Positions 4,043-60,774 of a stretch of DNA of 64,000 nucleotides are shown one piece after another (the stretch's first letter is position 1; each line of letters starts with the position of its first letter). The notes beneath the pieces are model-generated. The model was not told where the DNA came from and did not search any database. It saw only the letters and a list, made by a program, of their open reading frames with translations. Source of the stretch: Bidens hawaiensis. Lineage: Eukaryota; Streptophyta; Magnoliopsida; Asterales; Asteraceae. A program made the translations under genes and the position numbers. The DNA lies in contig JAIQDT010000001.1 of assembly GCA_021521415.1 (NCBI GenBank), positions 8,990,001 to 9,054,000 of the forward strand, in the 5' to 3' direction.

Positions 4043-4773
4043 ATAAACATTTTATATATTCTATGCATCAGCCCATATATATATAAATGTACAAGTATTT
4101 CCATACGATCGGTATGTACTTAAATACTTTAAATAAGACATGTTTTCCGCCCCGGGAAAATATAATTAAAACAATTCATTAAAAGGGGCTCGTGAAAACT
4201 CACCTTTTGTGAGTCGATGAGTAATATAAGGAACAGCTACGTGCCTGGATCTGTAATATAATATCTAGCCGTTACTATACAATTCCCATAACTTAAATAT
4301 GTATAAATCGGTACATCTGGGAACACTGTTAACCCAGTACTGTACTCGATTCGGGGACAATGTTAACCCCGTGACACTTCTAAGGACTCAGATTGTGACA
4401 TTGCTTAGAGTTTGACAGTCAATTTAGTTAAAGTGATGAAATTATAGCTCGGTTTGACACCCCGTTTGGCCGCGGGGCCCGTTTCCGGTATTTCGGTGTC
4501 GGAAACGGTAACATCGGGTACAATTACCCAAATCATCCGAATTATTTTCGGATGATTTATTTTTACTTAATTTACTTAGATTTATGAAAATGGTCTATTT
4601 TAAAGTTTTTCGTGTACCAGTCAGCTCGCTTATGCGAACTTTGCCGGTTTACACGTTTTAAGCTTTAACTAATTGTTTTTATGTTCATTTTAGCACAAAT
4701 AATTACCCGTTTAGTCTCGGGTCTTGAAATTTTGCTCAAAACTTATTTTGACAGAAAGAACATTTTATAAAAT

Positions 4774-5222
4774 TTTCCAGATTTATTTTCCTATATTTGC
4801 ATTTATTTACCTATTTTTAAATCTCATTAAAACACTAAAAATATCAAAAATACCAAAACACTTCAGAAAAATCCCAAATTTTTCTGGAATGATCCTTGTA
4901 ATTCTCATAACTCTCTGGAATTTTTCCAGATTTATTTTCGTAAATTTACATATATTTATCTATTTTCAAATCTTATTAAAATACTAAATATGTCAAAAAT
5001 ACCAAAACACTTTAGAAAAATACCAAATTTTTCTGGGATGATCCTTGTCATCCTCATAACTTTCTGGAATTTTTCCAGATTTATTTTCGTAAATTTACAT
5101 ATATTTATCTATTTTCAAATCTTATTAAAATACTAAATATGTCAAAAATACCAAAACACTTTAGAAAAATACCAAATTTTTCTGGGATGATCCTTGTCAT
5201 CCTCATAACTTTCTGGAATTTT
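4774..5222. repeat. 149-bp tandem triplication in Gypsy LTR
   Basis: Three head-to-tail copies starting near 4774, 4922 and 5071, each beginning TTTTCCAGATTTATTTTC. Copies two and three are almost identical, the first more diverged. A short reading frame here is an accident of AT-rich sequence. Confidence 0.85.
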
Positions 5223-6728
5223 TTCCAGATTTTAAAACTCATTTTTCAAGCCCTTTTCACCCAAAACCGAGCTAGAAAGCCCTAGAACTCGTTTCACCGA
5301 AAAGCCTACTTAGACTTTTCCAACTGAGCTCAAATTTTGTGGGTGACTTTTATATGTGATAAAAAGCTTATCTTAAATTTTCCAGAATTTTTCATCATGT
5401 TTTGCTATTTTTCACTATTTTTGGCCAAAACCGAGCATTAAATTCACCAAATATTCATATTTTATCCAAAAATTACCAAAAATTCACAGATCTCATATTT
5501 TCATGTGTAGATCATCTCTGTGAAATTTCGTGACCCGACTCTAAGCACACGAAAATCTGTCCAAATTTCTCATACACACGAAAACCGAACTCTTTTGTGT
5601 TTTCTAGCTTTTGATCGCAAGGATCTCGGTTTCTAGCCTTTGCTAGCCGCTAGATACAACACTTACAAGCACAATAACACAATACCAAGCAAACTATACC
5701 AACAATCAAACCATTTCTTTCATAGTGTCGGTTTTTATGTAAAAACAAAGATTCTAACCGTAAAAATCTATTCTAAACACTTTTAACTAATTACTTGGAT
5801 CAAGATCCTTTGTATAACTTGTATACATCCTTTGATCACACAAGAACCGGTTCCATCTCGGGTTTTCACCCATATTTCACTTGGAACTTTCTTTTCTCAA
5901 GGGTTGTGAAATTAACAACAAGATTCAAGCTTCAAAACAAGTATTATACCTTGTGGATTTGGTTAAAACTCAATGATTTGGAAGAACACTTGAATACTTG
6001 AGAGGATTTTGGAGAGTTTGTGAAGTAACAAAAGAAAAAAAGAAAGGAAATGTGTGTGTGTATACATGGCCGGCCATGAGGGGGGTGTGGGGGGGGGGGC
6101 CCACATCTCAAACCATGGCCACATATCTAGATTACGCAATCCGGATAATGTTGTGGATAATCTGGTTCAGTTCGTTTCTCGTTTAAACTCGTAATTCGGC
6201 TTGAAACGAGCCTAAAATGGTTGTTTTTCGGGTTAAAATAAAATTTATATAAAACTGATTTAAAAACTTTAAAAACTTAACCCATCACATTAAAACATCA
6301 TTTTATTAATAGTTACGCATCTTTTACGGCTTGATTGATCGTCTCTTGCTTGGTTTGGTGTTAAAGGTTTCGTTTAGCGTACCGACGTACCATTAAATCG
6401 AAATCCTTTTTCTGTGCTATAATTCACCTATCCCGAAGCATTAATACTTTGTAAACATCACTAACCATTATATACTTCGTCTATAATGTAATTCCCGATT
6501 CGTTCGGGTTTCAATAACCGATCATTGATTAATTGTAATTCCAATACGATTCACTATATAGTTGAGTATGATTCATACTGTGAACCATATATATTCGTAT
6601 AAACGTACTATAACTCATATAATCAGTATTAAATGACACGTAAATAGTATATTCCGGCTAGGGTATACCTGGATTTGCCGGAATCGTTACATGTGTCTTG
6701 TAATTTCTCGTCTTCTCTCTTCATCTCT

Positions 6729-9515
6729 TCAAGCATGCACTCCCTGTCTAACACATACAGAAACCAACTTCTGGTACTTCTTAGCTTCCTCTTTCCAAGC
6801 AGGAATGTAGAAAATCTTCTTAGCATGTAGTACCTGCAAGTCAGCTTGAGACAGATTGACTAAGTGCATAGGATCATACACTCTCATGATCTCTTGCTCA
6901 TCTTCATCCTCCATGACCGCTTCAGCAGTTTCACAATCCACGTACCACCACTTCAAGTCTTTCAAGACGTTCTTGGGCATCACCTTCATCGGCACTTCTT
7001 TTAAATGACGGACTGGTTTATACTTCATAACCATCCATGGTTTGCCGTCTGCCCTCATCCCTCTATCTTTGTCTTCTACTAACTTCCCTTTCTGAGGCTT
7101 CAGAAGTTCATACTTTTTGTCTTTAATGGCCTCCTTCCAAACAATTTTCCCAATTACTCTCGCCATATTATCATCACTTCTGTTTATCAGCCCCAGTCTC
7201 GCTAAGTCTTTCACCTCACACTCCGGTAAGGTATTCAGGGATCTTAACATCTTCTTGAAGTACTGAATGCCGTCGTAACGTTTGATCACAAATAGTTTCA
7301 ACTCTTCATCGTACAACCAGCATATGATTCCCTTCTTTGATTCTGCATATCCCTTTATATTATACGACTTTTTGAACATCGTCGGTACTGCTGGCTTCTT
7401 CGTCTTTACAAACCACTGAGCGCAGCCTTCCTTCCAGTTTGGCTGATCTTCCCACTCAGTGTTGTCAACCACAACATCTTCACATATAGTCGACTGTTCA
7501 ACCACAGGGATCTCATGCTCTACATTTTCTTCAACAATCTCTCCTTCTTCTATCACATTCTCAACCACAATTTCTGCACCAATCTTTTCAATCTCATCGA
7601 TTGGCAGAACATCATCTTCATTTATCAACTCATCATCCTCTAACATATCGTCTATCTCTTTTAGCGCATCAATCATATCATCAACCACATCCACATCATC
7701 ACCAACAGCTACCACATCATCACCAGATGCAGACTCCCCCTCAGCTGTGGAAGCCCCAAGAGCTATAGTAGTTCTTGGCAACTCACCACCTGCACCTTCC
7801 GGTGCATTGGGATCATCGTCTTGATCGTTTCGGCGCTTGGTCCTCAACTCATCTCCTCTACAACTCATCTCCCCCTGAGATGCCAAGAACACCTTCAAGG
7901 CATTTATTACTTTCCCGTGCTCAGCCAGGAGGGATGCCTGCAGTTGATTTGCTTCCACTAGGCTTTGAATAGTCTTGGACTGCTCAGCTACAATCCGCTC
8001 TAGTGAAGCTATCCGTTCCGAGTCAGAAGTGGGCGTGACCGCAGGTGGTACCGTACCCAATAACCCTGCAGTAGTGGTGACCGTAGACTCGACAAATCGT
8101 GCTACTACCACCGATGGAGTAAGCATTTGAGGTGGTAGAGACACAATTGCTGGAGTCGACGTCTGGACGGCTGTGATCGATGGAATGTCAGCCGACGATG
8201 TAGCCACTACGTGAACAACCGTAGCGCTTGTACTCGATACCTGCACAGAGGTAGGAACAAAGGACATACCAGATAGGGCAGGTGGAGCAAAACGTACCAA
8301 CCGTGAAGTCTCTCCAGCTCCTACACCCATACCTGTCGTTTCCCTTCGTGAACGCTTTCTCACCAGCTGCACAGCTTCTTCTTCATCATCTTCCTCGTCA
8401 TCGTCGTCAACAGTTCTCTTTTGTTTCCCAACTGTTCTCTCATGCGTTACCATCATCCGTCTAGCCTCTTCCATCACATCATCAAAGTCAGCCTGTGGAC
8501 CCGAGACTTGAATATTCTCTTGAGGATCAACTCGGTCCACATCAAACATTCCCTGCCCTCCCAACATGGCATCAAGATCAATCTCTGCAGCTGACACAGC
8601 AGCAGATACAGCAGGCGCAGCTGATACAGCCTGGGGTGCTGCCGCCTGTTGTGGTCTTGGGTCTCTGAACTCGTCCCCTGCCGCAGGCACATACTCCGGG
8701 TTTATAAGGTACCCAAAGAGCGGAGTATGCCTGGGACGCAGCTCAGGCTTGCTTCGTGCGCTGGAAGTGCGACACTGTGCAAAGATACGTTTTGTCACAC
8801 TTTCCACGTATCGAATAGGGCGTCGTTGAGGCAGCGTCGGAGCCACATGATTGAAAATCATCTGTAGGAATCGTGGATAAATTGTAAACCGCTCACGCGC
8901 CACAGCCCTTCGTTGCCTGTCGATCTCGTAAAAGATCATCTGGCTGAAAGAATATCGTTTATTATAAGTCAACGCAGTCATAGCAGACTGCATTGTCGCA
9001 CCCATACCATCAGTGCCTGCCTTCCGTCCTGACATACATACGATCATGACGTGCATAAGGAAGCGCCACTGATCTAAAAGAAATCCCTTCCTCCGTTGTG
9101 TGTCCCCTAAGAGACCAGAATACCCCATCCTGAGGAACGCCCCATCACGGAATGGTGCAACAAACTCCGTTGGGTCATCCCTCGTCTCTTCACCAAACTT
9201 CAACGTCACCCGTATATGTTCAGAAGAAAACTGAACAACTTGACCGTTTACGGTGGCTCGCATAACCGGGGGCTCAACCCGGCAATTGTACTCTACCGTC
9301 TGCCAAAAGTCTTCAATATTCGGTAGCGAAATAGGCAGGGTAGTGGTTATTGCATGATATATCCTTGAGCGAAGGAGAAAAGTAATTATCTCCCTATAGT
9401 CCTCCACGCCCTTTGCATCTGGGTCAAGTGTTATGAACTGGTTATGGGCTGGGAAGAATTGTCTGTGATCATCACCGTCATCACCTGCACCTCCTGCACC
9501 TCCAACAGCAGCCAT
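6729..9515 (-). CDS. Sirevirus aORF (env-like position), intact
   Basis: Uninterrupted 928-codon frame. Residues 20-250 form an N-terminal domain (ITFLLRSRIYHAI at about 44-56, a Phe/Met-rich core to about 235). At 290-480 there is an Ala/Ser/Thr-rich linker with basic clusters KQKR (about 364) and RKRSRR (about 386) flanking an acidic run, resembling a bipartite nuclear signal. At 496-548 there is a coiled coil (SERIASLERIVAEQSKTIQS), then a very acidic stretch at 590-690. The C-terminal domain at 690-928 has GIQYF (about 749) and DPMHLVNLS (881-889). There is no signal peptide or membrane span, so a true envelope role is not supported. The start is backed by an acceptor-like CAG two bases upstream, also present in A2. 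Homologues: A2 (58050-60772), C (28982-31271), B (21647-22157). Function unknown. Confidence 0.8.
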   Translation of the reverse strand: MAAVGGAGGAGDDGDDHRQFFPAHNQFITLDPDAKGVEDYREIITFLLRSRIYHAITTTLPISLPNIEDFWQTVEYNCRVEPPVMRATVNGQVVQFSSEHIRVTLKFGEETRDDPTEFVAPFRDGAFLRMGYSGLLGDTQRRKGFLLDQWRFLMHVMIVCMSGRKAGTDGMGATMQSAMTALTYNKRYSFSQMIFYEIDRQRRAVARERFTIYPRFLQMIFNHVAPTLPQRRPIRYVESVTKRIFAQCRTSSARSKPELRPRHTPLFGYLINPEYVPAAGDEFRDPRPQQAAAPQAVSAAPAVSAAVSAAEIDLDAMLGGQGMFDVDRVDPQENIQVSGPQADFDDVMEEARRMMVTHERTVGKQKRTVDDDDEEDDEEEAVQLVRKRSRRETTGMGVGAGETSRLVRFAPPALSGMSFVPTSVQVSSTSATVVHVVATSSADIPSITAVQTSTPAIVSLPPQMLTPSVVVARFVESTVTTTAGLLGTVPPAVTPTSDSERIASLERIVAEQSKTIQSLVEANQLQASLLAEHGKVINALKVFLASQGEMSCRGDELRTKRRNDQDDDPNAPEGAGGELPRTTIALGASTAEGESASGDDVVAVGDDVDVVDDMIDALKEIDDMLEDDELINEDDVLPIDEIEKIGAEIVVENVIEEGEIVEENVEHEIPVVEQSTICEDVVVDNTEWEDQPNWKEGCAQWFVKTKKPAVPTMFKKSYNIKGYAESKKGIICWLYDEELKLFVIKRYDGIQYFKKMLRSLNTLPECEVKDLARLGLINRSDDNMARVIGKIVWKEAIKDKKYELLKPQKGKLVEDKDRGMRADGKPWMVMKYKPVRHLKEVPMKVMPKNVLKDLKWWYVDCETAEAVMEDEDEQEIMRVYDPMHLVNLSQADLQVLHAKKIFYIPAWKEEAKKYQKLVSVCVRQGVHA

Positions 9516-9517
9516 AT

Positions 9518-10084
9518 CTGCAATAAACGAACCAAGTTAGATAAACGTTTAAGTTGTACACAAGTTCGCTTGATTACCAGGAGCGAAGTTGTGATCAAAC
9601 CTGTATAGGCGAAGTTAAAGGTGAGGCGAAGTTGGGAACAACTTCACTTCATCTTTAAGTTCGTCTAATTAATTTTAAGTAAAATGATCTGGGCGAAGTT
9701 AGTGATAACTTCGCCTCTTCACAACATCGCCTCAGGCGAAGATAAGGGTTAGGCGAAATTAAGGATAACTTCGCCTCAGGCGAAATTAATCGTCAGGCGA
9801 AGTTGCGGATAACTTCGCCGAAACCCTAACTTCGCCTGAACTGAATCGGCGACTGTTAGGATTCTAACAGCCGGAATCCGATGATTCGGCAAAGTTTGAC
9901 GATCCAGGAGACTCTAACACATGATATTACGGATGGTTAGATGAAAAGATCGTCCATGAACACGTAATACAAGTTTGTAAATCTCGGTTTTGAAAGGTCA
10001 CCGGACCGAGGTCACGAAACCGTTCAAAACGACCTATGAAAAGCATCACTGTCTTTGGATATACGGTTATTCGATACCACACAC
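9518..10084 (-). other. Putative 5'-UTR intron before aORF (A1)
   Basis: Donor-like CAAG/GTGTGTGG at 10084. Acceptor TTATTGCAG ends at 9518, with the branch-point consensus ATCTAAC at 9542-9536, about 20 nt from the AG. The ATG of the aORF starts 2 nt after the acceptor. Predicted length 567 nt; A2 gives 576 nt. The predicted first exon after the TATA box would be about 110 nt. Donor choice is the weaker part. Confidence 0.5.
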
Positions 10085-10221
10085 CTTGAATCTATGAACG
10101 AAACTGAGAAACAAGGATCGAGATCGGAAACGAATCAAGTTCGCCGGAGACGATATAAGTTCGCCGGATAATTCGAATAAGTTCGCTGAATTTCTGATGA
10201 ACAGTTTTGACCCTTAAAATC

Positions 10222-10315
10222 CTTTATATAGAGGCTTTGTTATACAGGCGAAGTTACGGATAACTTCGCCTAGGCGAAGTTATTCACAACTTCGCCTGTT
10301 CAACAACATCGCCTA
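10222..10315 (-). promoter_or_regulatory. Internal LTR-like promoter module upstream of aORF (A1)
   Basis: The minus strand has GGCGAAGTT/AACTTCGCC motifs, including the perfect 20-bp palindrome AACTTCGCCTAGGCGAAGTT (10262-10281), then 12 bp after the last motif a TATA box CTCTATATAAAG (10233-10222). The 5' LTR has the same order (palindrome, 5-10 bp, TATA). A2 keeps it at 61481-61580. It lies about 710 bp before the aORF ATG. Promoter activity is inferred. Confidence 0.6.
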
Positions 10316-11624
10316 AAATTTCAAAAATTAACCCTTAAGATTTTAACAGTTGTCCTTTAAGAAATAAATAACATGATCAATTCTAAGTAACCAGTTAAGA
10401 AATCATAAAGCTATCTAAGTACAAAAACGTAAAAAACTTAAAGTTTAAGGGATCAAATTTCAGTCTCGATAGGGACTGCTACGTTTTAGAAAAGATCCGA
10501 ACAGGAATCATACTAACTACGTGACTGTCACATAGATCCGTGTTTAGCTGTATTATGACATATAGAGACAGGTTGTAAGCAGGTAATATACTTAAGATGG
10601 TTTTCATCGTTTCTGTGATACGAGTTAGGTTCAATTAATCCTTAAAATTTAAGTGGGCAACAACTCAGAAATATTGATGCCTCCTATCTATCCTCAAAGC
10701 GTATTTGGCTTTCCCCAAGTCACCCCGAATTGACTTCGACCCATAGTGTCTGATTAAACTGTAAATATTCTTGATCTGTTTCCCGTTCTTCTTTCTTACT
10801 CAATGATTGTGAAGTCTTGATATCTTGAACTCTCGAATGTTACAATGACTCATAAAAATATTTTTTTTTTTTTTTAACGACATAGACTTCAAAGTAGAAA
10901 TTAACTGCAAGTCCCGAATCTGGATCACTGCAGTATCTTGAAATGCTATCTTCACGGGAATCAGAACACACATGGGTTCGTGTATGACTGAGTAATCACT
11001 TTTCTGCCTATCATTCGGAAAGATATACATGAAGACACGCAAAACTCTTAAGGAGTTTCCACATAAAATCAAGTAAAATTTAATTTGTATCACATCTACT
11101 TTTACGCACCATAAAAAGTTACCATGACATACAATGATTGTCCTAAAGCCTTTTAAGCCTAATAACTTCACTAGTTAAGCACACAAAGTTAGTATATCTA
11201 TCATTTTCCATGGTTGGATCAATTTTCCGTTTAACATAGCTAACTAACTTCTTACGAAGTAACAGACTTGAAAAGTAATTTCATTTCCCTCAAGAAATTT
11301 TGACTTCAATCGCCCCGATCACGTCAAAGTCTTCAGGTAAACGGCAATCCTGAAGATCCAATGGATCAACTGGACCGACCACATACAAGTATGTGTCCTT
11401 CTAACTAAGTATGACCGACTAATTTTCAGCGACAGAAAGAAAACACATCATAACCGCCCCGGTCACTTTCAGTCATCTGGTTAATGGCGACCCTCATTCT
11501 CTACAAGTAGAAACGAGAACCAAAACATATCCGAGGATATGTCCATCAAACTGAGGTAACCGACTAATTTTAAGCAATAGTGACGTTTTTTTTTTTTTTT
11601 AATAAGCACAAAAAAAAAACATGG

Positions 11625-14600
11625 TTACTCGGGATTGATCATCCCGTTCAGCTCAATTAGGTTTTGAAATCTGGATTTATCAAACGCTTTTGTAAATAAA
11701 TCAGCGAAATTTTCTAGCGTATCGACCTTTTCGACCTTAATCAGTTTCTTCTCAGCACAGTCCCGTATGAAATGATGACGAATGTCAATATGTTTAGTTT
11801 TACTATGTTTCACGGGATTGTTAATTACTGAGATGGCAGCAGTGTTATCAATTAAAATAGGAGTGAGTAAGAAATTCAGACCATAGTCGCGCAATTGTTG
11901 CTGAATCCACAAAACCTGAGAGCAGCAGTTGGATGCTGCCATATATTCAGCTTCGCACGTAGAGATCGCGACTGATGTCTGTTTCTTGCACTGCCAGGAA
12001 ACTAATCTTCCACCGAGAAACTGACATCCTCCTGTTGTCGACTTCCGACTCTGATTGCACCCTCCATAATCAGAATCTGTATAAGCAACCAGTTCCACGT
12101 CTCCTCCCTTTGGGTACCACAACCCTAGCTTCGGCTTGCCTTTGAGATACCGCAAAATCCTCTTCACACCCTTCATGTGAGATTCCTTTGGGTTTGCCTG
12201 AAAACGAGCACAAAGACAAACAGCAAACATTATATCAGGCCTAGAAGCAGTCAAATACATCAAAGAACCTATTATAGCCCGATACTGAGTTGGGTCCACA
12301 TCTGCGTCACCGTCTATATTAGCTCCCAACTTGTGGTTGACGCAAATTGGAGTGTCAAATGGAGAAGAGTCCTCCATCTTGAAGCGCTTGAGGACATCAT
12401 GAACATATTTTGTTTGATGAATGAACATCCCATCCTTCTTTTGATCAACCTGCAATCCTAAAAAGAACGTTAGTTCACCCATAGCACTCATCTCAAATCT
12501 TTTCTTCATGACGGCCTCAAATTCCTGACACATGGAGACTCTTGATGCAGCAAATATGATGTCATCCACGTAGACTTGAACTAGCAGGAAGTCACTTCCA
12601 TCTCTCTTCACAAACAGTGTGCTGTCAATCAAACCCCTTTCAAAACCATTCTCTAGCAAGTAGTCCGATAACGTTGAATACCAGGCACGAGGTGCCTGAT
12701 GTAATCCATACAGCGCCTTGCTCAACTTGTACACATGATCAGGAAAGTCTGGGTCAGGAAAACCCGGAGGTTGCTCAACATACACAACCTCATCAACTTT
12801 CCCATTGAGGAACGCACTCTTCACGTCCAACTGAAACACTTTCATCTTCTTAAAAGCAGCAAACGCCAAAAACAATCTTATCGCTTCCAACCTGGCCACC
12901 GGAGCGAACACTTCATTATAATCTATCCCCTCTTGCTGATTAAATCCTTTAACGACCAACCTCGCCTTGTTTCTTATAATAATCCCCTTTTCATCTCTCT
13001 TGCACTAAAACACCCATTTTGTGCCTATCGCATGCACATTCCTTGGTTTTTCAACCAAAGTCCAAACTTCCATCTTCTTAAATTGAGCCAACTCTTCTTG
13101 CATGGCCTCGACCCACGAGCTGTCCTTAAGAGCCATTTGATAATTTTTTGGTTCAATCTGGCTAATAAAGCAGGAGTACAAACATTCGTTCATTATACCC
13201 GTTTCCTTAATGCTTGTATAAACACAGGTGTGCTCATTCAAGCTACTTCTGGTTTGTACACCGGAGGACACATCACCTATAACATTCTCCAAAGGGTGAT
13301 CTATGTGAATTCTCGTGGTCGGAACAGCACCGACATGCAAATTATCTTCTAAATTAGTAGAGAGCTCATCAATGGTTGTTTTTGGCTGAGAGTGAAATGG
13401 ATTGATAAACTCTTCTTCAGGAGAGACAGCAGGGGAACCGATAGAATTTGATGAGGAAGGTTGACAATCATCAAATAGCTGTCTATGAGCCAAATTTTCC
13501 TCCTCATCTAGAATCATCTTCGTAGCAACACGTTCTTCTTCTTCTGTACGAAACAAATCAGGTATGTTAAAAGACTTGAAGAGCCTATCATAGTCGAAAA
13601 TCCCAGGAGGTCCGATGCTCGGTCTTGGCGATCTGTAACTCGTAATGTCGGTGTTACATACCACCTCAACCTTGCCGTTCGTTGTATTAAAGACACGCCT
13701 GTTGGGAGTCCCAACTTCATAGCCGACTAAGATTCCTTCAGCGGCTGTTTCACCAAACTTTGAAGGTGCCTTTAAAATTGAACACGGGGACCCGAAAGCT
13801 TCAAGTCCACACAAATTGGGCTTTCTCCCATGCATAAGCTCATAGCATGTTTTATTAAGTCTTTTTACCGTTAAAACTCTATTCAGTACATAGCAAGCTG
13901 TAGAAACAGCTTCAGCCCAGAACACCACCGGAAGCTTCGAATCAGCCAGCATAGTTCTGGCTCCTTCAATTAAAGTTCTATTCTTCCTTTCAGCCACTCC
14001 ATTCTGTTGCGGAGTATACGGAGCGCTGAATTAGTGTTCAATCCCTCTTGACAGACAGAAGATCTCCATTTCAAAATTTTTAAACTCGGAACCATTGTCA
14101 CTTCTGATGAACTTCACTCGTTTATCCATAATGTTCTCAACTTTGGTAATCAGATTCTTCACCATTTGAGCCGTTTCGTCCTTTGATTTCAGGAAGTATA
14201 CCCACGAGTATCGTGAGTAGTCATCAGTGATCACCAAGCAATAAGTTGTACCACCTAGACTTCTTACATTCACAGGACCGAAGAGATCCATGTGAAGCAG
14301 CTCTAGTGTACTAGCAATTGAATTCACTTTCTTGGTGAGATGGGACTTCTTGTGCTGCTTTCCCTTTTTGCACGCAAGACATTTGTCTTCAAAATTGAAA
14401 CTTTTTAAGGGAACACCCAACACAAGCCCATGTCTGACAATATGGTTCATCTTCCGAAGATGAATGTGCCCCATTCTCCTGTGCCACAGTTCAGATTCCG
14501 ATTCGCTTGCTTTCGTCAAAAGACACGATTCTTCCGTTGACATTTCAGTTGAACTTAAATCCATCATATACGTATTTCGATCACGTGGAGCCTTCATTAC

Positions 14601-14948: not shown

Positions 14949-17580
14949 TTAAAATTTGGGGACCCAAGACCTCTTGGTCTTGGGTCGATTAACCTTCTTA
15001 ACAGAACTCACACACCTTGGCTGACCAAAATTAGCATTAGATAAATTTCCACGAGTCCTAACAAGATACCTCCTTGGAGACTGATGGTGAGGCCAACCAA
15101 ACCGACGTACATTAAGAGAATCAAAAGAATTATAGCATTTGGTTTGGTTATTAGTAGTGTAAAAACGAGATGTGTTTCTTTGAAAACCTACATTATCTCT
15201 CAAATTTGAATGGTTTTCATTTTTAACATTTAAACGATTACCAAAAACCTTAGTCTCAGTTTTTGAGGGCCTCACCTCTCTAAAACGCTGCTTCAGAGGG
15301 CAATCAGCAACAAGGTGCCCAGTTTGATTACATCTAAAACAACACCTATGTTCAGCTTTCTTTTCAGCAGATGTTTTAGATGTGGAGGCAGTATTACCAA
15401 CCGTACATCTCACATAAGGTGGGACATATGGGTTGAGTGGAGTACTACTTTTAGTTGATTTAACTTTTTCTCCACTAGTGGGTAATACTTCCTTCTCTTT
15501 TGTCTTACCCGACTCGGATGACTTATCCGAATCAGATGAGACTGGACTTGAAATAGAAATTTTAACTTTTGAGACAGGCGAACTTGTTTCGCCTTTACTA
15601 ATTTCCGGTACTTTACCAGTTTCCTTAGCAGGACCTGTCTGATCAGCTACAAAATTAACAGATTCATGAACACTAGGATTGAAAGTATAATTATGGTTAT
15701 AAGGTGGTGGAACCTCATGGTAACCAATTCCTCCCCTCTTAGGTGAGGAACCTTGATCACTAACAAGGTGATCAAGAATAGCAGAGGAATTCCGGAATTG
15801 CTCCAGTTTCTTATTTAGTTCCACCACTTTTACCTGGTGATCAGCAATCTGTTTTTCTTTCTCAGCGATTAACTTTGTTTTCTCTTCTAAAACCTCGTAG
15901 CTTAGATCGATCACATCAATTTTCTCAGCTAATTTTGTTTTTAAACTTTTAACGTCTTTTTCACAAGCTTTAATTTTTATTTTATAATTATTTTCTCTTG
16001 TCTTTGTGAAGTGATGATCTTCTTTCAAGGTTTTAAATTCGGCATCCAACTTAACATACTGATCAGTAATTGTAGCAAGCTGTTCAGACAAGTTCTCACA
16101 TTTAGTACAGATAGGTTTAGTACATACCTCGGAGTTCTGGTCATTAGCCATGAAAGCTTTTTCATTTTCAGCAGCTTTCATACATTCTTCAGCTGCAACC
16201 TTCGCCATGTGTGCCTGCTCAAAGAGTTCTCCAGAGAACATGTTCCAGTTGTATTCACCAGCATCAGACATCATGGCATTATTCCCATTGTTATTTCCAC
16301 TTTGCTGTGTAGTCCTCCCCTGACTACGTTCTACACGTGCATTAGTGCACTCCTTTGCAAAGTGTCCGTTTTGTTGACAATTGTAACACCTCACCCTTGA
16401 CTTATCAAATCCTGGCTTTCCACCTACGAAATTTCTGCCAGTCTTCTTCATGAAACGCTTCACTCTTCTGACTATCATCGCCATCTGCCACTGCAGATCC
16501 ATCTCCTCCAGATCATCAGGATCGATCTGGTCATAGTCTTCTTCCAAAGCAGCAGGGTCCACAATCTTCCCTTGTATGTAGTTCTCGTAAGAAGCAATAA
16601 AAGATGCATAGAGTGCAAACTGCTCTTCAGCAGATTTGACACTCATTGGCATCTTAGTGTAGTTATTGCTTGATGCACTGGGAGAGAAACTACTCTTTGG
16701 ATGCTTGAGGTTTCGAAGCACTTGATCCTCCAGCAACAAAGCAAACATCACCGTTCATGTTTACTGACACATTTCCTTCATGAGAAGAGTTAGAACCTGA
16801 CTCTCCTTTGGAGTAGTAAGCAGCAGATTCAGACTTCGAACTTGAGCCTGAGATAACTTTGGCACCATACATACCAGGGTCTTGAACCTGATCCGTTGGT
16901 GTCTCTTTATGAACCATATTAAGCTCAAAGGTTCTGAGCTTGTTTACTACTGTCTCCAAGTCATAATTAGGAAAGTCTTTGTCTTCCCTCATTAGAACAG
17001 TGTACATTTCCCACTTTGGTGGGAGAGCATCGAGAAGCTTTTCAACTATTTCCTCCTCTCTGTAAGCAATAGAATAGTTGTTCAGCTCTGTCATTAGATG
17101 ATAATATCGGGTGATAATATCATCGAGCGATTCGTTCTTCAAATACTTGAAGACAGAGAACTGGGTCTTTAACAGCTTAATCTTCGAGGCACGAATACCC
17201 ACGTTCCCTTCGAATCTATTCTCAAGAGCATCCCAAAGCTCTCGTGCAGAAGTGTACTTCCGGAATGTATGGAGAATCTCTTGAGGAAGAGCCATAGTAA
17301 TTGCAGCATGGGCCTTGCTCTCGGCCTCATACATCTTCTTCTCTTCTTCCTCCATCTTGCTGTACTTCTTTATCACATCCCGACCTTCGTATTCCATTGT
17401 CGGTGGAATATATCCATCCTGGATGCACACCCACATCTTTGCATCCTGGTATTTAATATACTGAATGAACCTATCCTTCCACTCTACAAAGTCGGTTCCT
17501 TTTATCAACCTTGGGGCCTTAGTAGCCGACCCCGCTTCAACTTCCATTTTGACTAACTCTGAGATGTTAATTGACGACAT
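14949..17580 (-). pseudogene. Copia gag of A1, one frameshift
   Basis: Start chosen at ATG 17580 (MSSINISELVKMEVEAG...); 16 codons of open frame lie upstream but family B starts at the equivalent place. The N-terminal half is a UBN2-type gag domain (DFVEWKDRFIQYI, ALPQEILHTF, ARELWDALENRFEG). A one-base shift within 16690-16751 breaks the frame. The second frame carries CCHC knuckle CYNCQQNGHFAKEC (near 16370), a coiled coil (about 16100-15780), a Ser/Lys-rich linker, a second CCHC knuckle CFRCNQTGHLVADC (near 15320) and a basic end. It closes with tandem TAA TAA stops, still in frame with pol. Gag coats element RNA in virus-like particles. The shift could be mutation or, less likely, recoding. 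Confidence 0.85.
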
Positions 17581-18077
17581 CTTCTCGAAAACACGAAAAA
17601 CCTGAAAAAAAAACAAAAATTCTTCCAAACAGTACTATAGGCGAAGTTAAGGATAACTTCTCTTAAGTGTTAACTTTGCTGGAAAATCCTTAAATTCGCG
17701 TGACTTGGAGAAGTTGAGAATAACTTCGCTTAAGGTAAGCGAACTTAGGAGGTAAGCGAAGTTGAGGATAACTTCGCTTAGGCGAACTTATGAGGTAGGC
17801 GAAGTTGTGGTTAACTTCGCTCAACCTTATATCTTCGCCGAAACACTACTTCCAGTGACGGCAACTTCGCCTGAAGAACAACAACTTCGCCCGAAGAACA
17901 CTGAAAATATTCAGATCTGTTTTCGACGATTTAGCAGTTTCCGGTCGGTGTGACGGCTTGAATATGACTGTATAAGGTGAGTATAACACAATATCAACGA
18001 ACACGCGTCCCGCGAATAGGTCAAACGAGACGTTTTCTACACCCGCGTGAAATCCCGAACCACACAATCGAGCCAAA
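17581..18077 (-). other. Leader of A1 with GGCGAAGTT repeats and acceptor-like site
   Basis: Untranslated leader between primer site and gag. Repeated GGCGAAGTT/AACTTCGC motifs in both orientations fill 17640-17900. On the minus strand GTTTTTTTTTCAG ends at 17602, 22 nt before the gag ATG, and resembles a splice acceptor, so the repeats could lie in a leader intron. No clear donor was found. Confidence 0.55.
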
Positions 18078-18089
18078 GCTCTGATACCA
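18078..18089 (-). other. Primer-binding site of A1, tRNA-iMet
   Basis: Plus strand GCTCTGATACCA; element strand TGGTATCAGAGC, 2 bp inside the LTR. Matches the initiator tRNA-Met 3' end. Confidence 0.88.
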
Positions 18090-18091
18090 AT

Positions 18092-18553
18092 TGTAGGTTC
18101 CCGTACGGATCTTACACGGGATATCGCTATCTACGTAGGTGCGGAATCCCTGCGTAGGTAGTTACGAGCGTAGAATACGTAGAACAATCACACGCGATAC
18201 AAACGAACACGTTATGTATTATAACTTGAAACACGTCTACTACAGACTCGATCTCTCGTCTATAGACTTACTGAATTACACGTGATTAACCAAAAACTCT
18301 CAACTCCTAAACGTAACCCGTAGGCTATATAAATACACGACAACTTCGCCTCAGGCGAAGTTGTCAGTAACTTCGCTCGTTGAACAAGTTCGCCTAGGCG
18401 AACTTGTCAACAACTTCGCTTGTTCAACAAGTTCGCCTAAGCGAACTTGTTGACAACTTCGCTTACATGCATAAACATAAACTTAAACATAATTACATTA
18501 CAGACTCGATTACAAACGCTAGACTATGAACTACTGACATTTATGTACCAACA
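18092..18553 (-). repeat. 5' LTR of Copia A1 (462 bp)
   Basis: Plus strand TGTAGGTTCCCGTACGG at 18092 to GTACCAACA at 18553. It aligns end to end with the A2 3' LTR (57536-57984), which has matching TGTTGGT/ACCAACA termini, so the ends are well supported. It holds palindromes and a TATA box. Confidence 0.88.
18324..18452 (-). promoter_or_regulatory. LTR promoter of A1: three palindromes and TATA box
   Basis: Palindromes at 18424-18452, 18384-18407 (perfect, 24 bp) and 18340-18364 (12-bp arms), all with core TTCGCC...GGCGAA or TTCGC...GCGAA. They are followed 6 bp downstream on the minus strand by the TATA-like ATTTATATAG (18333-18324). A2 keeps two palindromes and the TATA at 57794-57878. 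Position just upstream of TATA suggests a regulatory role. Confidence 0.65.
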
Positions 18554-21357: not shown

Positions 21358-21612
21358 TTCGCTAACATCCCCTAGCGAACCAGCTTCCCCTTCGTTACAT
21401 ACATCAACTTAGCAAAGCACCTCCTGATTCGTTAACATCCCCTAACGAATCAGGAGGGAATACATTAATTGGTTAGTTCGCTAACATCCCCTAGCGAACT
21501 AGCCTTTAATCTAGCGAACTAGCTTAATAAATAAAACTATTTATTACATTAATCATAAACAAAACGTTAACGTTAAATACAAAGACTCTAGACGCAAAAC
21601 CGTGCACTAACA
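21358..21612 (-). repeat. 3' LTR of B, truncated
   Basis: Matches 28320-28574 with two differences. The distal part (including TATA) is missing at the junction with the Gypsy LTR. Next to it (21613-21631) the minus strand reads GACGAGGGGGTGTC, the polypurine tract. Confidence 0.85.
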
Positions 21613-21646
21613 GACACCCCCTCGTCTTGAGCTCTTTGTCTTTAAC

Positions 21647-22157
21647 TTATTTGAAATGCTTTGACTGCCAGTCTCTGCAACTATGAATTCCATGTTCATG
21701 ACACACACGAACAACTCGCTGGAATTGCATAGCCAGGTCATAATCTTCTTGGCGCTCGAACAAGATCTGCTTCCTGAAGAGCACGTCATTGTCGGTCTCT
21801 GATAAGTTAACCAACCACATCGGGTCGATTATCTTGATAAGCTTAGTCTTCAGACCTCTCCCTAGAACAATGACGGCCTCGCTGGTACGGTTGTCATAGT
21901 ACCAGCGGTTGAAAGAGAGATACATGTCTTGTGGCATTGTCTTCACAAGAACTTGCTTCATAGTCTTGGGCGGCTTCACCTTCAAAATAAGTTTCCTCCA
22001 GCCAGTCCTTGGATCAATCTCATCTATACTCTTTCATCTCGGGACCTGAGGCTTAAAGAACTTGAAGCCGTGGTTGACCTCAAAGAGAAGATGCCGATGA
22101 AACATATCAGCATGTTGGTGACCCCCACGATTAATAAATGGACCCCCACGATTAATG
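21647..22157 (-). pseudogene. C-terminal remnant of B aORF
   Basis: Encodes, with a frame break near 22030, the last roughly 165 residues of the aORF. Stretches include LLFEVNHGFKFFKPQVP (near 22065-22110), KVKPPKTMKQVLVKTMPQ (near 21920-21980) and DPMWLVNLSETDNDVLF (near 21780-21830), ending at 21647. It corresponds to the DPMHLVNLS domain of A1 and to the C homologue. The upstream part is deleted and joined directly to integrase. Confidence 0.75.
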
Positions 22158-23656
22158 AACAGGAGCTTCGTTTTCAGGTTCTTCAGTTGGAGCAGCAGTT
22201 GAAGCTTCAACATCATTTGAACTTGCAAACCGTGGAATTTCCAAATGTTCTTCAAAATACGCTCCGAACTACATCTTCATCTGGATGATCAGTTGATAAA
22301 GTGAAAGAATTAAATAAGCCATTGTAATCAAACATCCAGTCGGGACCTTTCCCTTGTGAAGGAGTAGTGTACTTTTGACAATCAACGTGGTACCACTCTT
22401 CGACACAACCAGACGTAAAATTGAAAACCCGTTTCTTAGGTGACGCATACCCTAAGAAATAACCCTCAATGGCTTTCTCTTCAAATTTACCCGCATCCCT
22501 CTTCAGCATAGTACAAGGACACCCAAAAGGTTCCAAATACTTTAAGTTAGGCTTATGATTGTTTAATAGTTCATAACTGGTCTTCTTTAGTCGTTTAACC
22601 GTCAGAACTCAACTAAAAGTATAACAAGCCGTATTCACAGCCTCATTCCAGAATTGGACAGGAAGCTTAGAATCAGCGAGCATGGTTCTTGCAACTTAAA
22701 TCAAGGTTCTGTTCTTTCTTTCAGCAACGCCATTTTATTGAGGTACATAGGGTGCACTATATTCCCGATGAATTCCCTTTTGGATACAAAAGAAATCCAA
22801 CATAGTGTTCTTGAATTCTGTTCCATTATCACTCTGAATTCTCCTCACCTTTTGTTTGTAAAGTGATTTGATTTTCGTGATAAGGTTTTTTTACCAAAAC
22901 AGACGTTTGATCTTTCGAGCTCATGAATAAAATCCACGAATATCTCGAATAATCATCAGTCACGACAAGACAATACCAGTCTCTAGAAATACTCGCACGA
23001 TTCACTGGACAAAACAAATCCATATGAAGTTGTTCCAGCGGAGTATCAATGGAATTGAATACTTTAGATGGGTGTGATTTCTTCTTTTGTTTGCCCTTCT
23101 TACAAGCAACACAATGATCTGATAACTTAAAATTTTTCAAAGACACCCCCTCAACCAAATCGTTCACCATTAAATAATTCATCTTTCAAATGTGTATGTG
23201 ACCCATTCTTCGATGCCAAAGTATGGAGTCTTTCTCGGTTGCTTTCGAGACAAAACACGTTTCGATCGATGCAGATGCTCTAGAGTTCATATTCAAGACA
23301 TAAATATCATTTGATCGTGGTGATCGCATGACAACCTGTCCTCGGGAATCATGTATCCCGGTTTCAGAATAAGACACCCTCTATCAGTAAAACGGTAGTG
23401 TATTTCTTATCACAAATCTGTGACACACTCAATAAGTTATGATCAACTTTATAACAATAATTAACTTTCTCAAATGTAATTTTCCCATTCGAAACTTCAC
23501 CTTCTTGTGTGATCATACCCCCAGAATTCCCAGCAAACGCCACATAACCCCTTGAATATTTCTTACATTTGATAAGAGGTTGAGATTTCTAGTAATATCG
23601 CGAGAACATCCGCTATCCATGATTCAGTTTTCACCAGAAATGGTCTAGGATGAACC
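22158..23656 (-). pseudogene. Copia B protease-integrase, broken
   Basis: Protease MDSGCS (near 23615), integrase zinc finger WHRRMGHIHI (near 23190-23220) with CVACKKGKQKKK (near 23090), core LHMDLFCPVN (near 23000), DDYSRYSW and the C-terminal MEPFGCPCTMLKR...GYFLGYA region (near 22450-22536). Several stops and shifts break it, including an Arg-to-stop change beside 23183. Pol stops after the integrase C-terminus; no RT or RNase H follows. Cannot make active integrase, so B needs a helper. Confidence 0.82.
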
Positions 23657-23764
23657 CTACACACAAACAAAAGTGATTAGTTCAAAAAGGTAGCCCCGGC
23701 CTCGGTCTTGGGCACCTTTTGGTTTTCTTGGGAAAAATTAACCTTACTCGCATTCATTTGTTGT

Positions 23765-26700
23765 TCAGCAACTTGTGAATAAGTTGCAGGTTTTCTTTGA
23801 CTTTCGTCTTAGATACGCTGCTTGAACCACATTTGAATTTTCATTCTTACACAGAGGAGCAATTGGAACAAACTTGGATTTAACTTGACCATGAGTCTCA
23901 TTAACATGAACCACCTTACGAGGATTCACATTAGAGAACATAATATGAGTATCATCAGCATACGACACAGGTCGTTTCAGAATCTCCTTTACCACAGGAA
24001 TCGGTTTGGAATGTTCCTTGATAAAAGGATGAAGATTCTGCTGGTACTTCTGACTACAATCCCTCACAACATGACCAAGTTGACCGCACAAGAAACAAGT
24101 TCGCATGTCTACACGATGATGTTGCGAGGTATTTGGAATGAATGACTCAGAAGTTTGTTGATGACTCACATTTTTAGTCATGCTCTTAGCAAACTCATCA
24201 GATAATTCAGATTTCTTCATTAAGTTAAAATCTAAATTAGAACAGTTTGAAAAACTTTTCAAGGTGTCAGTTCCTGTTGACTTAACAAATTTAACTTGCT
24301 TAGCTTGTTTTAAAACTTGTTTTGCTCTTGTCATTGGATCTGATGAAACTGATGTTTTTGCTTGAGCATATTGACGTTCAAGTTCACGAACCTTGGAAGT
24401 TTCATTGCAAAATACACTCTCAATAAGTTCAGGTTTGATGATACTTATTGGAATATCTTTTTCAGTGAACATCGTATCCATTCCTTTTAACTTAAAAACT
24501 CTAGCAACAGATGGCCTAGAACTAGAAGGATTAATGAAACACATTAAATCCTCATCAGAAACTTTCGGTTTTTCTGACTTCTTTGCCTTCACAGAGTTCA
24601 CTTTCATCGAATTTTCCTTTTTCACTTGAGGTTTGTGTGAACCATACACTGCTTCCTCAAATTTGTGAGGCTCGCACAGAATATGATTAGAACTAGGAAT
24701 GTTGTTATTCTTGTGTATAATCTCGGGTTCAAACACATCCTCGATAATGACCTTGTCATCGTGTTCAACAAACACCTTTTTGCTTTGAACATGAGATTTT
24801 TGATGAGCAACTTGGGTTTTAACATTTTCAGATTTAACAGATTTAACATTTTCTTTAATCACAGGTTCTTTCAAAATTACCTCTTCTTCCGTTTTGGCAA
24901 AAAGATTCATTTTATAGTCATTGTGAAATGGTGGAGGAATTTCTACAAAACCTATACCCTTTTTAGAGTCCTTTTGTTTTCCAGAAACTTCGATAATTTC
25001 ATTCAACAAAAACGAAGAATACCGAAATTTACCCAACTTGTTCTTCAACTCAAGAACCTCATTCTCAAGCTCAATTATCTTTGAACGATGTTTCAAGATT
25101 TCTTGAAACTTTTGGTCATTAATTGTCATTTTCACAGATAACTCGGCTTTTAAATCAAGATTACTTACAGTCAAAGCCTCAATCTTTTCTCTTGAGTTGA
25201 TTTGAGAATTCAAGGATTGTCTATAAGTATCTTTCAATGATACAATCTCTTTCAGTAAATTGTCATTTTGAAGTTTTAATGAATCAATTTTAGACTTGTT
25301 ATAACCACAATCAACACATGATACCTTAGAAGAAGTAGATTTACTAACCTCATTCTGGTTGGCTATGCAAGCAGAAGTGGAAGATTCGCTGATCTTCGCC
25401 ATACAAGCAAAATTGATTGGAAGTTTTTCGCTTGAATCATCCGACTCAGATCCAGAATCATTATCAGATGACAAATCACTTCCACTAGCATCTTGAGAAT
25501 CTTCACCAATTCCAAACATTGCTAGGTTTGCTTGACTGTTGTTGCATAGCAATTTTTGAGACCAGTCATTTCCATCCAGATTAGACAGCATTGCCTGATT
25601 TCCAGAAGATGATGGTTTTGAACTTGAAGACTTTCCAGCATCATTTTGATCTTGATTTCTCGAACCAGTGTATTCTTTCTTAGGTTTATCACATTCCTTT
25701 GCGAAATGCCCAAATTCTTGACAATTGTAGCATTTAACCTTTAGTTTATCAAACCCAAGCTTCTTGCTCAATGAAGGAAGATCTTTGCCTGTTCTTTGTA
25801 TAAACTTCTTCACTTTTCTGACAATCATCGCCATGTTCCACTTTAGATCCATGAGTTCTAAATCATCGGGATCAATTTGATCATAATCTTGATCGGTTAA
25901 ATCACTTGTGGCAATCTTACTACTCACCAAATTCTCATAGGAAGACATAAAGGCAGACAAAAATGCAAAATTCTGTTCAGCCTCCTTTATGTTTACATTC
26001 GGTTGAAATGAGATTTGTTTAGTAGAAGATGAATTTCCCGATGCCCCAGATGAATCAGAATTACCAGACGTATTTCCAGCTGTATAGAAACAAGCTTGTG
26101 GATCATTAAATGAAGCATTTGCATTTTCACTTACAACAACTTGAGTAAGAAAAGCGGTTAGTGGAGATATGGTTGAACTAAGAGGCATACTTCCACCATA
26201 GAACGAAGAATCATGACTTTCCTTTGAAGATTTCTGACATTTCAGATCATATTCTCTGGCTTCAATCTTTTGCATAAATTCAATAGCAGTCAGATCTTCA
26301 TTTGCAAAATAATTGTTTTCCTTCAGAACCATTAAGAACGTGGAATAAGAACCTGGAAGTATACTCTTGATTGTATCAATTTTATCACTTTCAGGAACTT
26401 CAATTTGCATCTTGTCCATCTCAGCTATCAAGTGATTGAATCTTGTTGTCATTTCTTCAACTGTCTCACCTTTCAATAGATTAAAGTTTCGAAATTGAAA
26501 CTTAAGCATCACCTTTTTACTCTCTGCTGTGTTACCCATACTTCTCATGCGAAGATGTTGAAATAAAGCAGCACATCTTTTTATGCTACCCACTTGGTGA
26601 AAGATAGTCTCAGGCAAGGCCATGGTTAGAGTAGAATAAGCTTTTATTTCTATCTCTAATGCTTTCTTTTCTTCAACAGAGTATTGTGAGATAGCCTTTG

Positions 26701-26935
26701 GTGTAAAACCTGTAGTCTCATCTCCAATCATAGGAACAGTGTAGACTTCATCTAAGCAGTAAGAACAATCAGAATGAATTGAACCTAAGTGAGCACGAAA
26801 CCTAGGTTCCCACTTGGTAAAATCACTAAACTTCATCAATCTTGGACATTTAGAATGCGAACCTATCTCGGTATCAAGTTGCAACATTTGTTGCATCAAC
26901 ATGTTTTGAGACGCTAATGCATACATGCCGGCCAT
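23765..26935 (-). CDS. Copia B gag, intact 1056 codons
   Basis: Open from MAGMYALASQNML... to the stop at 23765. UBN2-type gag N-terminus (FSDFTKWEPRFRAHLGSI, YSTLTMALPETIFHQV) to about residue 240. A Ser/Asn-rich linker follows, then the block QDYDQIDPDDLELMDLKW (near 360), CCHC knuckle CYNCQEFGHFAKEC (about 401-414), an acidic Ser-rich stretch and a long coiled coil (about 550-650). A Lys-rich region and a second CCHC knuckle CFLCGQLGHVVRDC (about 946-959) complete it. Twice the length of compact Copia gags but normal for Sireviruses. It is the only complete structural gene in B. A non-autonomous element that keeps a working gag could still package its own RNA. Confidence 0.88.
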   Translation of the reverse strand: MAGMYALASQNMLMQQMLQLDTEIGSHSKCPRLMKFSDFTKWEPRFRAHLGSIHSDCSYCLDEVYTVPMIGDETTGFTPKAISQYSVEEKKALEIEIKAYSTLTMALPETIFHQVGSIKRCAALFQHLRMRSMGNTAESKKVMLKFQFRNFNLLKGETVEEMTTRFNHLIAEMDKMQIEVPESDKIDTIKSILPGSYSTFLMVLKENNYFANEDLTAIEFMQKIEAREYDLKCQKSSKESHDSSFYGGSMPLSSTISPLTAFLTQVVVSENANASFNDPQACFYTAGNTSGNSDSSGASGNSSSTKQISFQPNVNIKEAEQNFAFLSAFMSSYENLVSSKIATSDLTDQDYDQIDPDDLELMDLKWNMAMIVRKVKKFIQRTGKDLPSLSKKLGFDKLKVKCYNCQEFGHFAKECDKPKKEYTGSRNQDQNDAGKSSSSKPSSSGNQAMLSNLDGNDWSQKLLCNNSQANLAMFGIGEDSQDASGSDLSSDNDSGSESDDSSEKLPINFACMAKISESSTSACIANQNEVSKSTSSKVSCVDCGYNKSKIDSLKLQNDNLLKEIVSLKDTYRQSLNSQINSREKIEALTVSNLDLKAELSVKMTINDQKFQEILKHRSKIIELENEVLELKNKLGKFRYSSFLLNEIIEVSGKQKDSKKGIGFVEIPPPFHNDYKMNLFAKTEEEVILKEPVIKENVKSVKSENVKTQVAHQKSHVQSKKVFVEHDDKVIIEDVFEPEIIHKNNNIPSSNHILCEPHKFEEAVYGSHKPQVKKENSMKVNSVKAKKSEKPKVSDEDLMCFINPSSSRPSVARVFKLKGMDTMFTEKDIPISIIKPELIESVFCNETSKVRELERQYAQAKTSVSSDPMTRAKQVLKQAKQVKFVKSTGTDTLKSFSNCSNLDFNLMKKSELSDEFAKSMTKNVSHQQTSESFIPNTSQHHRVDMRTCFLCGQLGHVVRDCSQKYQQNLHPFIKEHSKPIPVVKEILKRPVSYADDTHIMFSNVNPRKVVHVNETHGQVKSKFVPIAPLCKNENSNVVQAAYLRRKSKKTCNLFTSC

Positions 26936-28030: not shown

Positions 28031-28043
28031 GGCTCTGATACCA
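28031..28043 (-). other. Primer-binding site of B, tRNA-iMet
   Basis: Plus strand GGCTCTGATACCA, 2 bp from the LTR edge at 28046. Confidence 0.88.
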
Positions 28044-28045
28044 CT

Positions 28046-28574
28046 TGTTTGACCCCTCGATTCGTATCAATAACAATAACAACTAACAGATCTCTGATCT
28101 GCGTATATATATATAACTAATACGATTACGGATCTAACTCTTAATTACCATTGATTCAGTGTTATGTATGTATGTATATTATCACTATGTTATCAGTAAT
28201 TGTTTGTATAATATTAAGGTGAAGCTTGAGAGAGAGATTGCACAGCACTTCGTTAATTAATCTCCAAAACATAAATTAAAACGTGAACAGTAGTTCACTA
28301 TATATAGAGGGTAATCTGGTTCGCTAACATCCCCTAGCGAACCAGCTTCCCCTTCGTTACATACATCAACTTAGCGAAGCACCTCCTGATTCGTTAACAT
28401 CCCCTAACGAATCAGGAGGGAATACATTAATTGGTTAGTTCGCTAACATCCCCTAGCGAACTAGCCTTTAATCTAGCGAACTAGCTTAATAAATAAAACT
28501 ATTTATTACATTAATCATAAACAAAACGTTAACGTTAAATACAAAGACTCTAGACGCAAAACCGTGCGCTAACA
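28046..28574 (-). repeat. 5' LTR of B (529 bp)
   Basis: Plus strand TGTTTGACCCCTCG at 28046 to GCGCTAACA at 28574. The inner edge is fixed by the primer site, the outer edge by the start of C LTR sequence (AGCTTAACACTTAATC). The expected target duplication is AGCTT; its partner was lost with the left end of B. Confidence 0.87.
28299..28463 (-). promoter_or_regulatory. LTR promoter of B: three palindromes and TATA
   Basis: Inverted repeats at 28436-28463, 28382-28419 (15-bp arms) and 28316-28345 share the loop ACATCCCC. Outer arms are TTCGCTA/TAGCGAA, the middle one TTCGTTA/TAACGAA. The TATA box CTATATATAG (28307-28299) follows 9 bp after the last palindrome on the element strand. Confidence 0.65.
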
Positions 28575-31271: not shown

Positions 31272-31273
31272 TT

Positions 31274-60772: not shown

Positions 60773-60774
60773 AT

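What the first reader, a model, noticed from the sequence alone, without database searches (positions are those of the whole stretch)
9515..10315. Internal promoter plus 5'-UTR intron cassette driving the Sirevirus aORF
In A1, A2 (60772-61580) and C (31271-32165) the spacer before the aORF has the same order: palindrome cluster, TATA box, about 100-110 nt of predicted first exon, donor-like GT, 567/576/673 nt, branch consensus and acceptor AG exactly 2 nt before the aORF ATG. The palindrome-TATA arrangement copies that of each family's LTR. A standalone transcription unit inside a retrotransposon, with an LTR-like promoter duplicated in front of a third gene, is not something I know to be described for Sireviruses. 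Geometry is seen; function is inferred.
Basis: partly seen in the sequence, partly recalled or inferred. Interest (0 to 1): 0.9.

Follow-up and report, generated by a model that had tools for sequence, protein, structure and literature searches.

The report
Intron-bearing third gene in retrotransposon
A plant retrotransposon seems to run its extra third gene as a small independent gene with its own start signal and a leader intron; naturally spliced copies left in the same genome show that the intron is real, while the start signal is so far supported only by its conservation.

Summary
The geometry is as reported, and the intron (10084-9518 in A1) is real. The genome that holds the window contains copies lacking exactly this intron: 8 loci join the predicted exon to the acceptor 2 nt before the aORF ATG. 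One runs LTR to LTR, with 99.5% LTR identity over 427 nt and a 5-bp target duplication, so spliced genomic RNA was reverse-transcribed and inserted. Another 14 loci splice other donors (pol, gag, spacer) into the same acceptor, 9 of them fusing pol in frame to the aORF; one more uses a pol donor and the internal donor around a 19-nt exon. In 61 aligned copies, TATAWA (61/61), donor GGTNNG (61/61) and an initiator-like CAT (54/61) stand out from a stretch with median column conservation 0.62; the acceptor (59/61) lies in a generally conserved stretch. The diverged C family keeps the layout. An internal promoter is thus well supported but not shown: there are no transcript data, and the 8 intronless loci derive from longer RNAs. 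Palindromes before Sirevirus ENV genes and an internal-promoter hypothesis are published (Bousios 2010). New here are the TATA-exon-intron unit, its conservation and the genomic splice record.

The parts
10241..10320 (-). A1 palindrome block upstream of the internal TATA
   Evidence: sequence; 20-nt bins with conservation 0.85-0.99 in 61 copies
10225..10230 (-). A1 internal TATA box
   Evidence: TATAWA in 61 of 61 aligned copies; most conserved 4-column window of 10239-9861
10197..10199 (-). A1 initiator-like CAT, inferred transcription start at A 10198
   Evidence: column conservation 0.96-0.98; CAT in 54 of 61 copies; column 10228 to 10197 is 28-31 nt in 61 copies. Start inferred, not observed
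10085..10198 (-). A1 predicted first exon (5'-UTR); in relative L097 its last 19 nt are an internal exon
   Evidence: exon joined to acceptor in 8 loci; micro-exon in L097
9518..10084 (-). A1 5'-UTR intron, GT-AG, 567 nt
   Evidence: exactly absent in natural copies; donor GGTNNG 61/61, acceptor CAGATATG 59/61
6729..9515 (-). A1 aORF (928 aa, env-like position), no Pfam match at E 0.01
   Evidence: A1/A2 mismatches at codon positions 1,2,3 = 126/894, 67/893, 332/894
11882..11882 (-). last exon base of an alternative donor near the end of pol; joins in frame to the aORF acceptor
   Evidence: 7 loci, two of them letter-identical; also the first donor of L097
11916..11916 (-). second donor near the end of pol (last exon base), out of frame by phase count
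   Evidence: L058 and L119
12269..12269 (-). alternative donor in pol (last exon base), in frame
   Evidence: L092, L093
12789..12789 (-). alternative donor in pol (last exon base), out of frame
   Evidence: L094
16128..16128 (-). alternative donor in gag (last exon base), out of frame by phase count
   Evidence: L099
61998..61998 (-). alternative donor in the A2 spacer (last exon base, then GTATAG; A1 has GGAAAG at the matching place)
   Evidence: L095
60775..61350 (-). A2 intron, 576 nt, with TATA at 61489
   Evidence: exact junction in C7927, 1 mismatch in C3183
31274..31946 (-). C intron, 673 nt, with TATA at 32087
   Evidence: AGGTA donor, AG acceptor and 2-nt spacing kept in relatives; no spliced copy found
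18094..18553 (-). A1 5' LTR with palindromes and TATA at 18331

Best explanation
The aORF is run as a separate sense-strand transcription unit inside the element. Palindromes bind an activator, the internal TATA and initiator start a short mRNA about 110 nt before the donor, and a 5'-UTR intron of about 425-620 nt is removed so that the aORF ATG lies 2 nt after the splice. Shown: the intron is spliced; TATA, initiator-like CAT, donor and acceptor are conserved. Inferred: that the conserved TATA is an active start, that the palindromes bind a factor, and that the intron is kept because it helps expression. When the LTR-started genomic RNA runs through the unit, the same splice sites are sometimes used, and those RNAs occasionally re-insert as intronless copies.
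For: Eight intronless loci join the predicted exon to the predicted acceptor: C4, C7512, C7927, C3183, C108 and L096, L098, L102 (L102 placed by position only). C7512 has both LTRs, 99.5% LTR identity over 427 nt and a GATAG target duplication. In 61 aligned of 66 fetched copies, TATAWA is 61/61, GGTNNG 61/61 and CAT at the initiator place 54/61, in a span with median column conservation 0.62. CAGATATG is 59/61, but its 20-nt bins are conserved overall (0.89-0.90). C family: AGGTA in 9 of 10 aligned rows, the string TATA in 8 of 10, AG 2 nt before the start position in 8 of the 9 rows with letters there. The aORF is under protein-level constraint, so it needs an expression route.
Against: No transcript data; no 5' end was seen. 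All 8 intronless loci of this class match the element upstream of the TATA position, so they record longer, presumably LTR-started RNA, not the internal start. In one of them (C108, L084) the palindrome-TATA part is changed and shows no TATAWA. The end of the predicted exon can be an internal exon (L097). The C family gave no spliced copy. The same acceptor is used from pol, gag and spacer donors.
Confidence: 0.75

Rival explanations
1. The aORF is made from the LTR-started RNA by alternative splicing: a donor in pol joins the aORF acceptor in frame, giving a Gag-Pol-aORF fusion protein, comparable in outcome to SIRE1, where the stop codon between pol and env is read through. The internal TATA is not needed.
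For: Donor 11882 (7 loci, 6 distinct) and donor 12269 (2 loci) join the acceptor in frame. Eight of these 9 have a 172-codon stop-free stretch upstream in the fetched DNA; L093 has 61.
Against: The splice cuts off the end of pol (RNase H by its place; that name is from recall, names only RVT_2 there). Donor 12789 is out of frame, and 11916 and 16128 are by my phase count, so 2 of 5 coding donors in frame is about what chance gives. It does not explain the conserved TATA, CAT and donor 10084.
Confidence: 0.15
2. A retrovirus-like subgenomic env mRNA: a donor in the 5' leader joins the aORF acceptor, removing gag-pol.
For: The acceptor is used by many donors; spliced env RNA is reported for BAGY-2 (as cited in PMC2829016 and PMC3735527).
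Against: None of the 23 spliced loci found uses a leader donor, although such an RNA should keep what reverse transcription needs (inference). The open searches cover only copies with the 16-mer after the acceptor and filtered bases before it. TATA and donor 10084 stay unexplained.
Confidence: 0.05
3. Chance geometry or decaying relic with no function.
For: TATA-like and GT/AG strings are common in AT-rich spacer; about a fifth of the columns of the variable span are highly conserved anyway (78 of 380 at 0.95 or more).
Against: Spliced natural copies at the exact sites in several subfamilies; GT follows the junction at every donor matched to a window parent; 61/61 TATA and donor in fast-changing surroundings.
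Confidence: 0.03

Closest known systems
Sirevirus ENV-upstream palindromic repeats and the internal-promoter hypothesis (Bousios 2010, PMC2829016: passages and sections 9 and 20 read; Peterson-Burch and Voytas 2002, known only through it)
   Same: Palindromes before a TATA in the LTR and again upstream of the ENV gene; an internal ENV promoter proposed
   Different: That paper says no promoter could be conclusively identified, and 'intron' does not occur in its main text. Here TATA, initiator-like site, exon, intron and splice record are given.
Grande gene23 of maize (described in PMC7264820, passages read)
   Same: Extra gene between pol and 3' LTR transcribed from its own promoter
   Different: Antisense gene; Grande is Gypsy-type (recalled). 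Here the gene is sense-strand in a Copia-type element
BAGY-2 spliced env RNA (as cited in PMC2829016 and PMC3735527)
   Same: env-like gene behind a used splice acceptor
   Different: Gypsy-type; here no leader donor among 23 spliced loci and a local donor with its own TATA
BARE1, copia and EVD splicing in Copia elements (PMC3735527 and PMC8892269, passages read)
   Same: Copia elements that use alternative splicing to balance products
   Different: Those splices serve Gag. [quoted passage not shown] here about 1% of copies are such DNA copies (21 of 2003).
SIRE1 stop-codon suppression (described in PMC2829016 section 20)
   Same: Possible outcome of a Pol-Env fusion
   Different: Readthrough there; here in-frame splicing in some copies, plus a separate gene-like unit

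Membership tests
Copia superfamily (Pseudoviridae) | gag, then integrase before reverse transcriptase, Copia-type gag and RT models | tested here: met
   PF14223, PF00665, PF07727 in this order on the minus strand
Sirevirus | palindromic repeats in the LTR before a TATA, and again before the ENV gene | tested here: met
   A1; definition from PMC2829016
Sirevirus | ENV-like gene between pol and the 3' LTR | tested here: met
   928-aa sense ORF after pol, no Pfam match; but no clear transmembrane helix in A1 (best 19-residue hydropathy 1.29)
Sirevirus | conserved 5' LTR/PBS junction and multiple identical PPTs | not tested
   a TTGGTATCAGAGCT string follows the 5' LTR, read by eye; PPTs not examined
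Retrovirus-like spliced env mRNA | leader donor joined to env acceptor | tested here: not met
   0 of the 23 spliced loci found
Spliceosomal intron | GT-AG ends, precise removal in RNA-derived copies, conserved sites | tested here: met
Pol II core promoter | conserved TATA and initiator at near-fixed spacing | tested here: met
   TATAWA 61/61, CAT 54/61, column distance 28-31 nt
Pol II core promoter | transcripts that start there | not testable with these tools
   no RNA data at hand

The most novel reading that the evidence does not exclude
A Copia-type element keeps, by selection, a complete host-style gene inside itself: an LTR-like palindrome-TATA promoter plus a 5'-UTR intron for its third gene. 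It re-uses that one acceptor to make in-frame Gag-Pol-aORF fusions from the LTR RNA. Spliced RNA re-inserts and keeps producing intronless copies, yet these do not take over, which would mean that the intron itself is needed for the third gene.
Probability: 0.3. Interest if true: 0.85.

Novelty: new variant of a known kind. Interest (0 to 1): 0.7.

Why it matters
How Sireviruses express their env-like gene has been open: the papers read name stop-codon suppression in SIRE1 and an internal promoter that was not identified. This gives exact coordinates for a candidate start, a donor and an acceptor in a family of thousands of copies, and a method that needs no RNA: reading an element's splicing from copies that re-inserted after splicing. 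It also shows that spliced LTR-retrotransposon RNA can re-enter the genome, at about 1% of copies here (21 of 2003).

Tried and rejected
Protein neighbours of the aORF: none at E 0.001 among the 7991 candidates scored; Pfam: none at 0.01. Spliced copies of the C family: none with up to 3 mismatches. A second pattern gave 4 places; 2 were fetched and matched no C sequence, 2 were judged from the listing only. Leader-to-acceptor splicing: none seen. Copies starting at the predicted internal start: none among the 8. L015 first looked like a splice, but I saw neither a GT nor an AG at its join and judged it a deletion. L100 and L101 were judged rearrangements or chance, L040 an unrelated hit without a match to A1 or A2. 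Dropped before the 61-copy alignment: 5 of 66 (L018 and L058 spliced; L015, L020, L055 rearranged). Left out of the C alignment: 5 of 14 fetched (L105, L112, L114, L115, L116: little or no spacer match). The branch-point count (YTRAY in 61 of 61) has no control and is not used as evidence.
Full report
What is there. Element A1 lies on the minus strand. Copia-type gag, integrase and reverse transcriptase are followed by about 2.1 kb of spacer and a 928-aa sense ORF without Pfam match. The 3' 800 nt of the spacer carry palindromes, a TATA box, a predicted exon, a GT donor and an AG acceptor 2 nt before the ATG. A2 (77-83% like A1 in the two long matches) and the more distant C have the same order. 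In A1 the palindrome half-sites are dense in the LTR, the gag leader and this unit, and nearly absent from coding DNA.

The intron is real. The genome that holds the window is a 3.47-Gb assembly in 15902 contigs, a plant by its elements (inference). A 21-mer of the aORF occurs at 5647 places with up to 2 mismatches. For A1 there were 3 places within 3 mismatches: one exact (C4) and one with 3 mismatches (C7512) are aORF copies lacking the intron; the third is unrelated. For A2 all 3 places are intronless aORF copies, with 0, 1 and 3 mismatches. The backward control pattern gave 0 in both. The C7512 copy runs from LTR to LTR, its LTRs match at 99.5% over 427 nt, and it is flanked by GATAG on both sides. 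This is what reverse transcription and insertion of a spliced genomic RNA would leave. The C4 copy has its 3' LTR, but its match to A1 begins inside the spacer.

Other joins to the same acceptor. Searches for the 16-mer ATATGGCTGCTGTTGG preceded by G, with -3 not C, gave 36 + 2 places. Of these 38, 16 look in the listing like point-changed acceptors and were not fetched. The other 22 were examined: 20 are spliced and 2 (L100, L101) are not. The 20 are 7 at the internal donor, 7 at pol donor 11882 (L087 and L089 are identical over 831 letters and count once as events), 2 at donor 12269, 1 at 12789, 1 at spacer donor 61998 of A2, 1 at gag donor 16128, and one (L097) with two introns around a 19-nt exon that ends at the internal donor and, in the sister L096, follows an AG. 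One of the 7, L102, is placed by position and not by a matched donor. A search for joins ending in CAG gave 61 places; 60 look like native acceptors in the listing and were not fetched for this, and 1 (C9345, L119) is spliced from donor 11916. With C7512 and L058, whose bases after the acceptor differ from the 16-mer, the total is 23 spliced loci: 8 at the internal donor alone, 14 at other donors, and L097 with both.

How common. Unspliced copies with the exact 20-mer number 1906. With the 60 and 16 above that makes 1982 unspliced against 21 spliced, about 1%. This is approximate, since the first-base filters drop some places. Among 66 copies fetched without regard to the spacer (66 of the 100 listed, all exact 21-mer hits, of 5647 places; the window's own A1 and A2 are among them), 2 are spliced. 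At every donor matched to a window parent the next bases are GT, which deletion by chance would not give. For 61998 this holds in A2 but not in A1.

Conservation. I aligned 61 of these 66 copies; pairwise identity has median 0.83 and minimum 0.71. Between clusters, 20-nt bins from 10220 to 9841 range from 0.51 to 0.78, against a mean of 0.83 for 9515-9300 in the aORF. In that variable stretch and just before it, TATAWA is present in 61 of 61; donor positions -1, +1, +2 and +5 are invariant (GGTNNG 61 of 61); the columns of CAT at 10199-10197 have conservation 0.96-0.98, with CAT itself in 54 of 61, and lie 28-31 nt from column 10228. CAG before ATATG is present in 59 of 61, but its surroundings are conserved too (bins 0.89-0.90). 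Of 28 GT dinucleotides in 10239-9861 only the donor is kept in all copies; the next best are kept in 59, 59, 58 and 57. 78 of 380 columns there reach 0.95, so other conserved islands exist.

The C family is an independent test; the BLAST pieces reaching into its spacer are mostly 65-76% identical. Of 14 copies fetched (of 170 places), 9 plus the window copy were aligned. The donor AGGTA is present in 9 of 10 rows (L110 has no match there). The string TATA is present in 8 of 10 (5 of them TATATA; L113 and L110 lack it). AG 2 nt before the start position is present in 8 of the 9 rows with letters there; L109 has lost the ATG, L107 the AG, and L106 has no letters there. No spliced copy of C was found; there are far fewer copies.

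Reading. A local intron of this size ending 2 nt before the ATG makes best sense for an RNA that starts just upstream of the donor. In the LTR-started RNA, gag and pol still lie in front of the aORF. Together with the conserved TATA and CAT this makes an internal promoter the best explanation, but its use is inferred. The spliced copies do not prove it: all 8 of the internal-donor class match the element upstream of the TATA position, and one of them (C108) shows no TATAWA.

The in-frame joins from pol donors 11882 and 12269 (9 loci) raise the rival that a Gag-Pol-aORF fusion is made. Two of five coding donors in frame is about chance (12789 checked; 11916 and 16128 by my phase count), and the splice removes the end of pol. 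I hold this to be a possible second product.

Known work. Bousios 2010 (PMC2829016; passages, sections 20 and 9) describes palindromic repeats before ENV in nine Sireviruses and in the LTR before a TATA, and supports an internal ENV promoter without identifying one. PMC3414828 (passages) names stop-codon suppression and internal promoter as the mechanisms of ENV-like expression, citing earlier work. PMC7264820 (passages) states that env-like genes are transcribed from the 5' LTR and describes Grande gene23 with its own antisense promoter. PMC3735527 and PMC8892269 (passages) describe Copia splicing for Gag; the former reports that DNA copies of spliced BARE RNA cannot be amplified. PMC3599292 and PMC11963269 were also looked at in passages. 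Searches listed no paper that, from title and start of abstract, describes a TATA-exon-intron unit before a Sirevirus ENV gene; the library lacks most subscription journals.

Noticed in passing
L015:1-1521: A copy in which the 5' LTR, leader and the first codons of gag run straight into the aORF about 110 bases inside it, gag-pol missing, without visible splice signals: a deletion derivative.
   Followed up: partly
window 17580-18093: The gag leader carries the same palindrome half-sites as the aORF intron (10 in 514 nt) and a T-rich stretch ending in CAG before the gag ATG; gag may have a similar leader cassette.
   Followed up: no
window 9860-10220: The first exon and first half of the intron change faster between copies than the spacer upstream, the palindromes or the aORF.
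   Followed up: partly
L087 and L089: Two spliced loci on different contigs are identical over 831 letters: assembly haplotypes, segmental copy or onward transposition of a spliced copy.
   Followed up: no
window 21358-28574: A third Copia-type element with LTR pieces 99% identical and, by the matches, no counterpart to the start of the aORF of C.
   Followed up: no
window 4770-5223: Three head-to-tail copies of a 149-bp unit beyond the 3' end of A1; one search shows no A1 3' LTR there.
   Followed up: no
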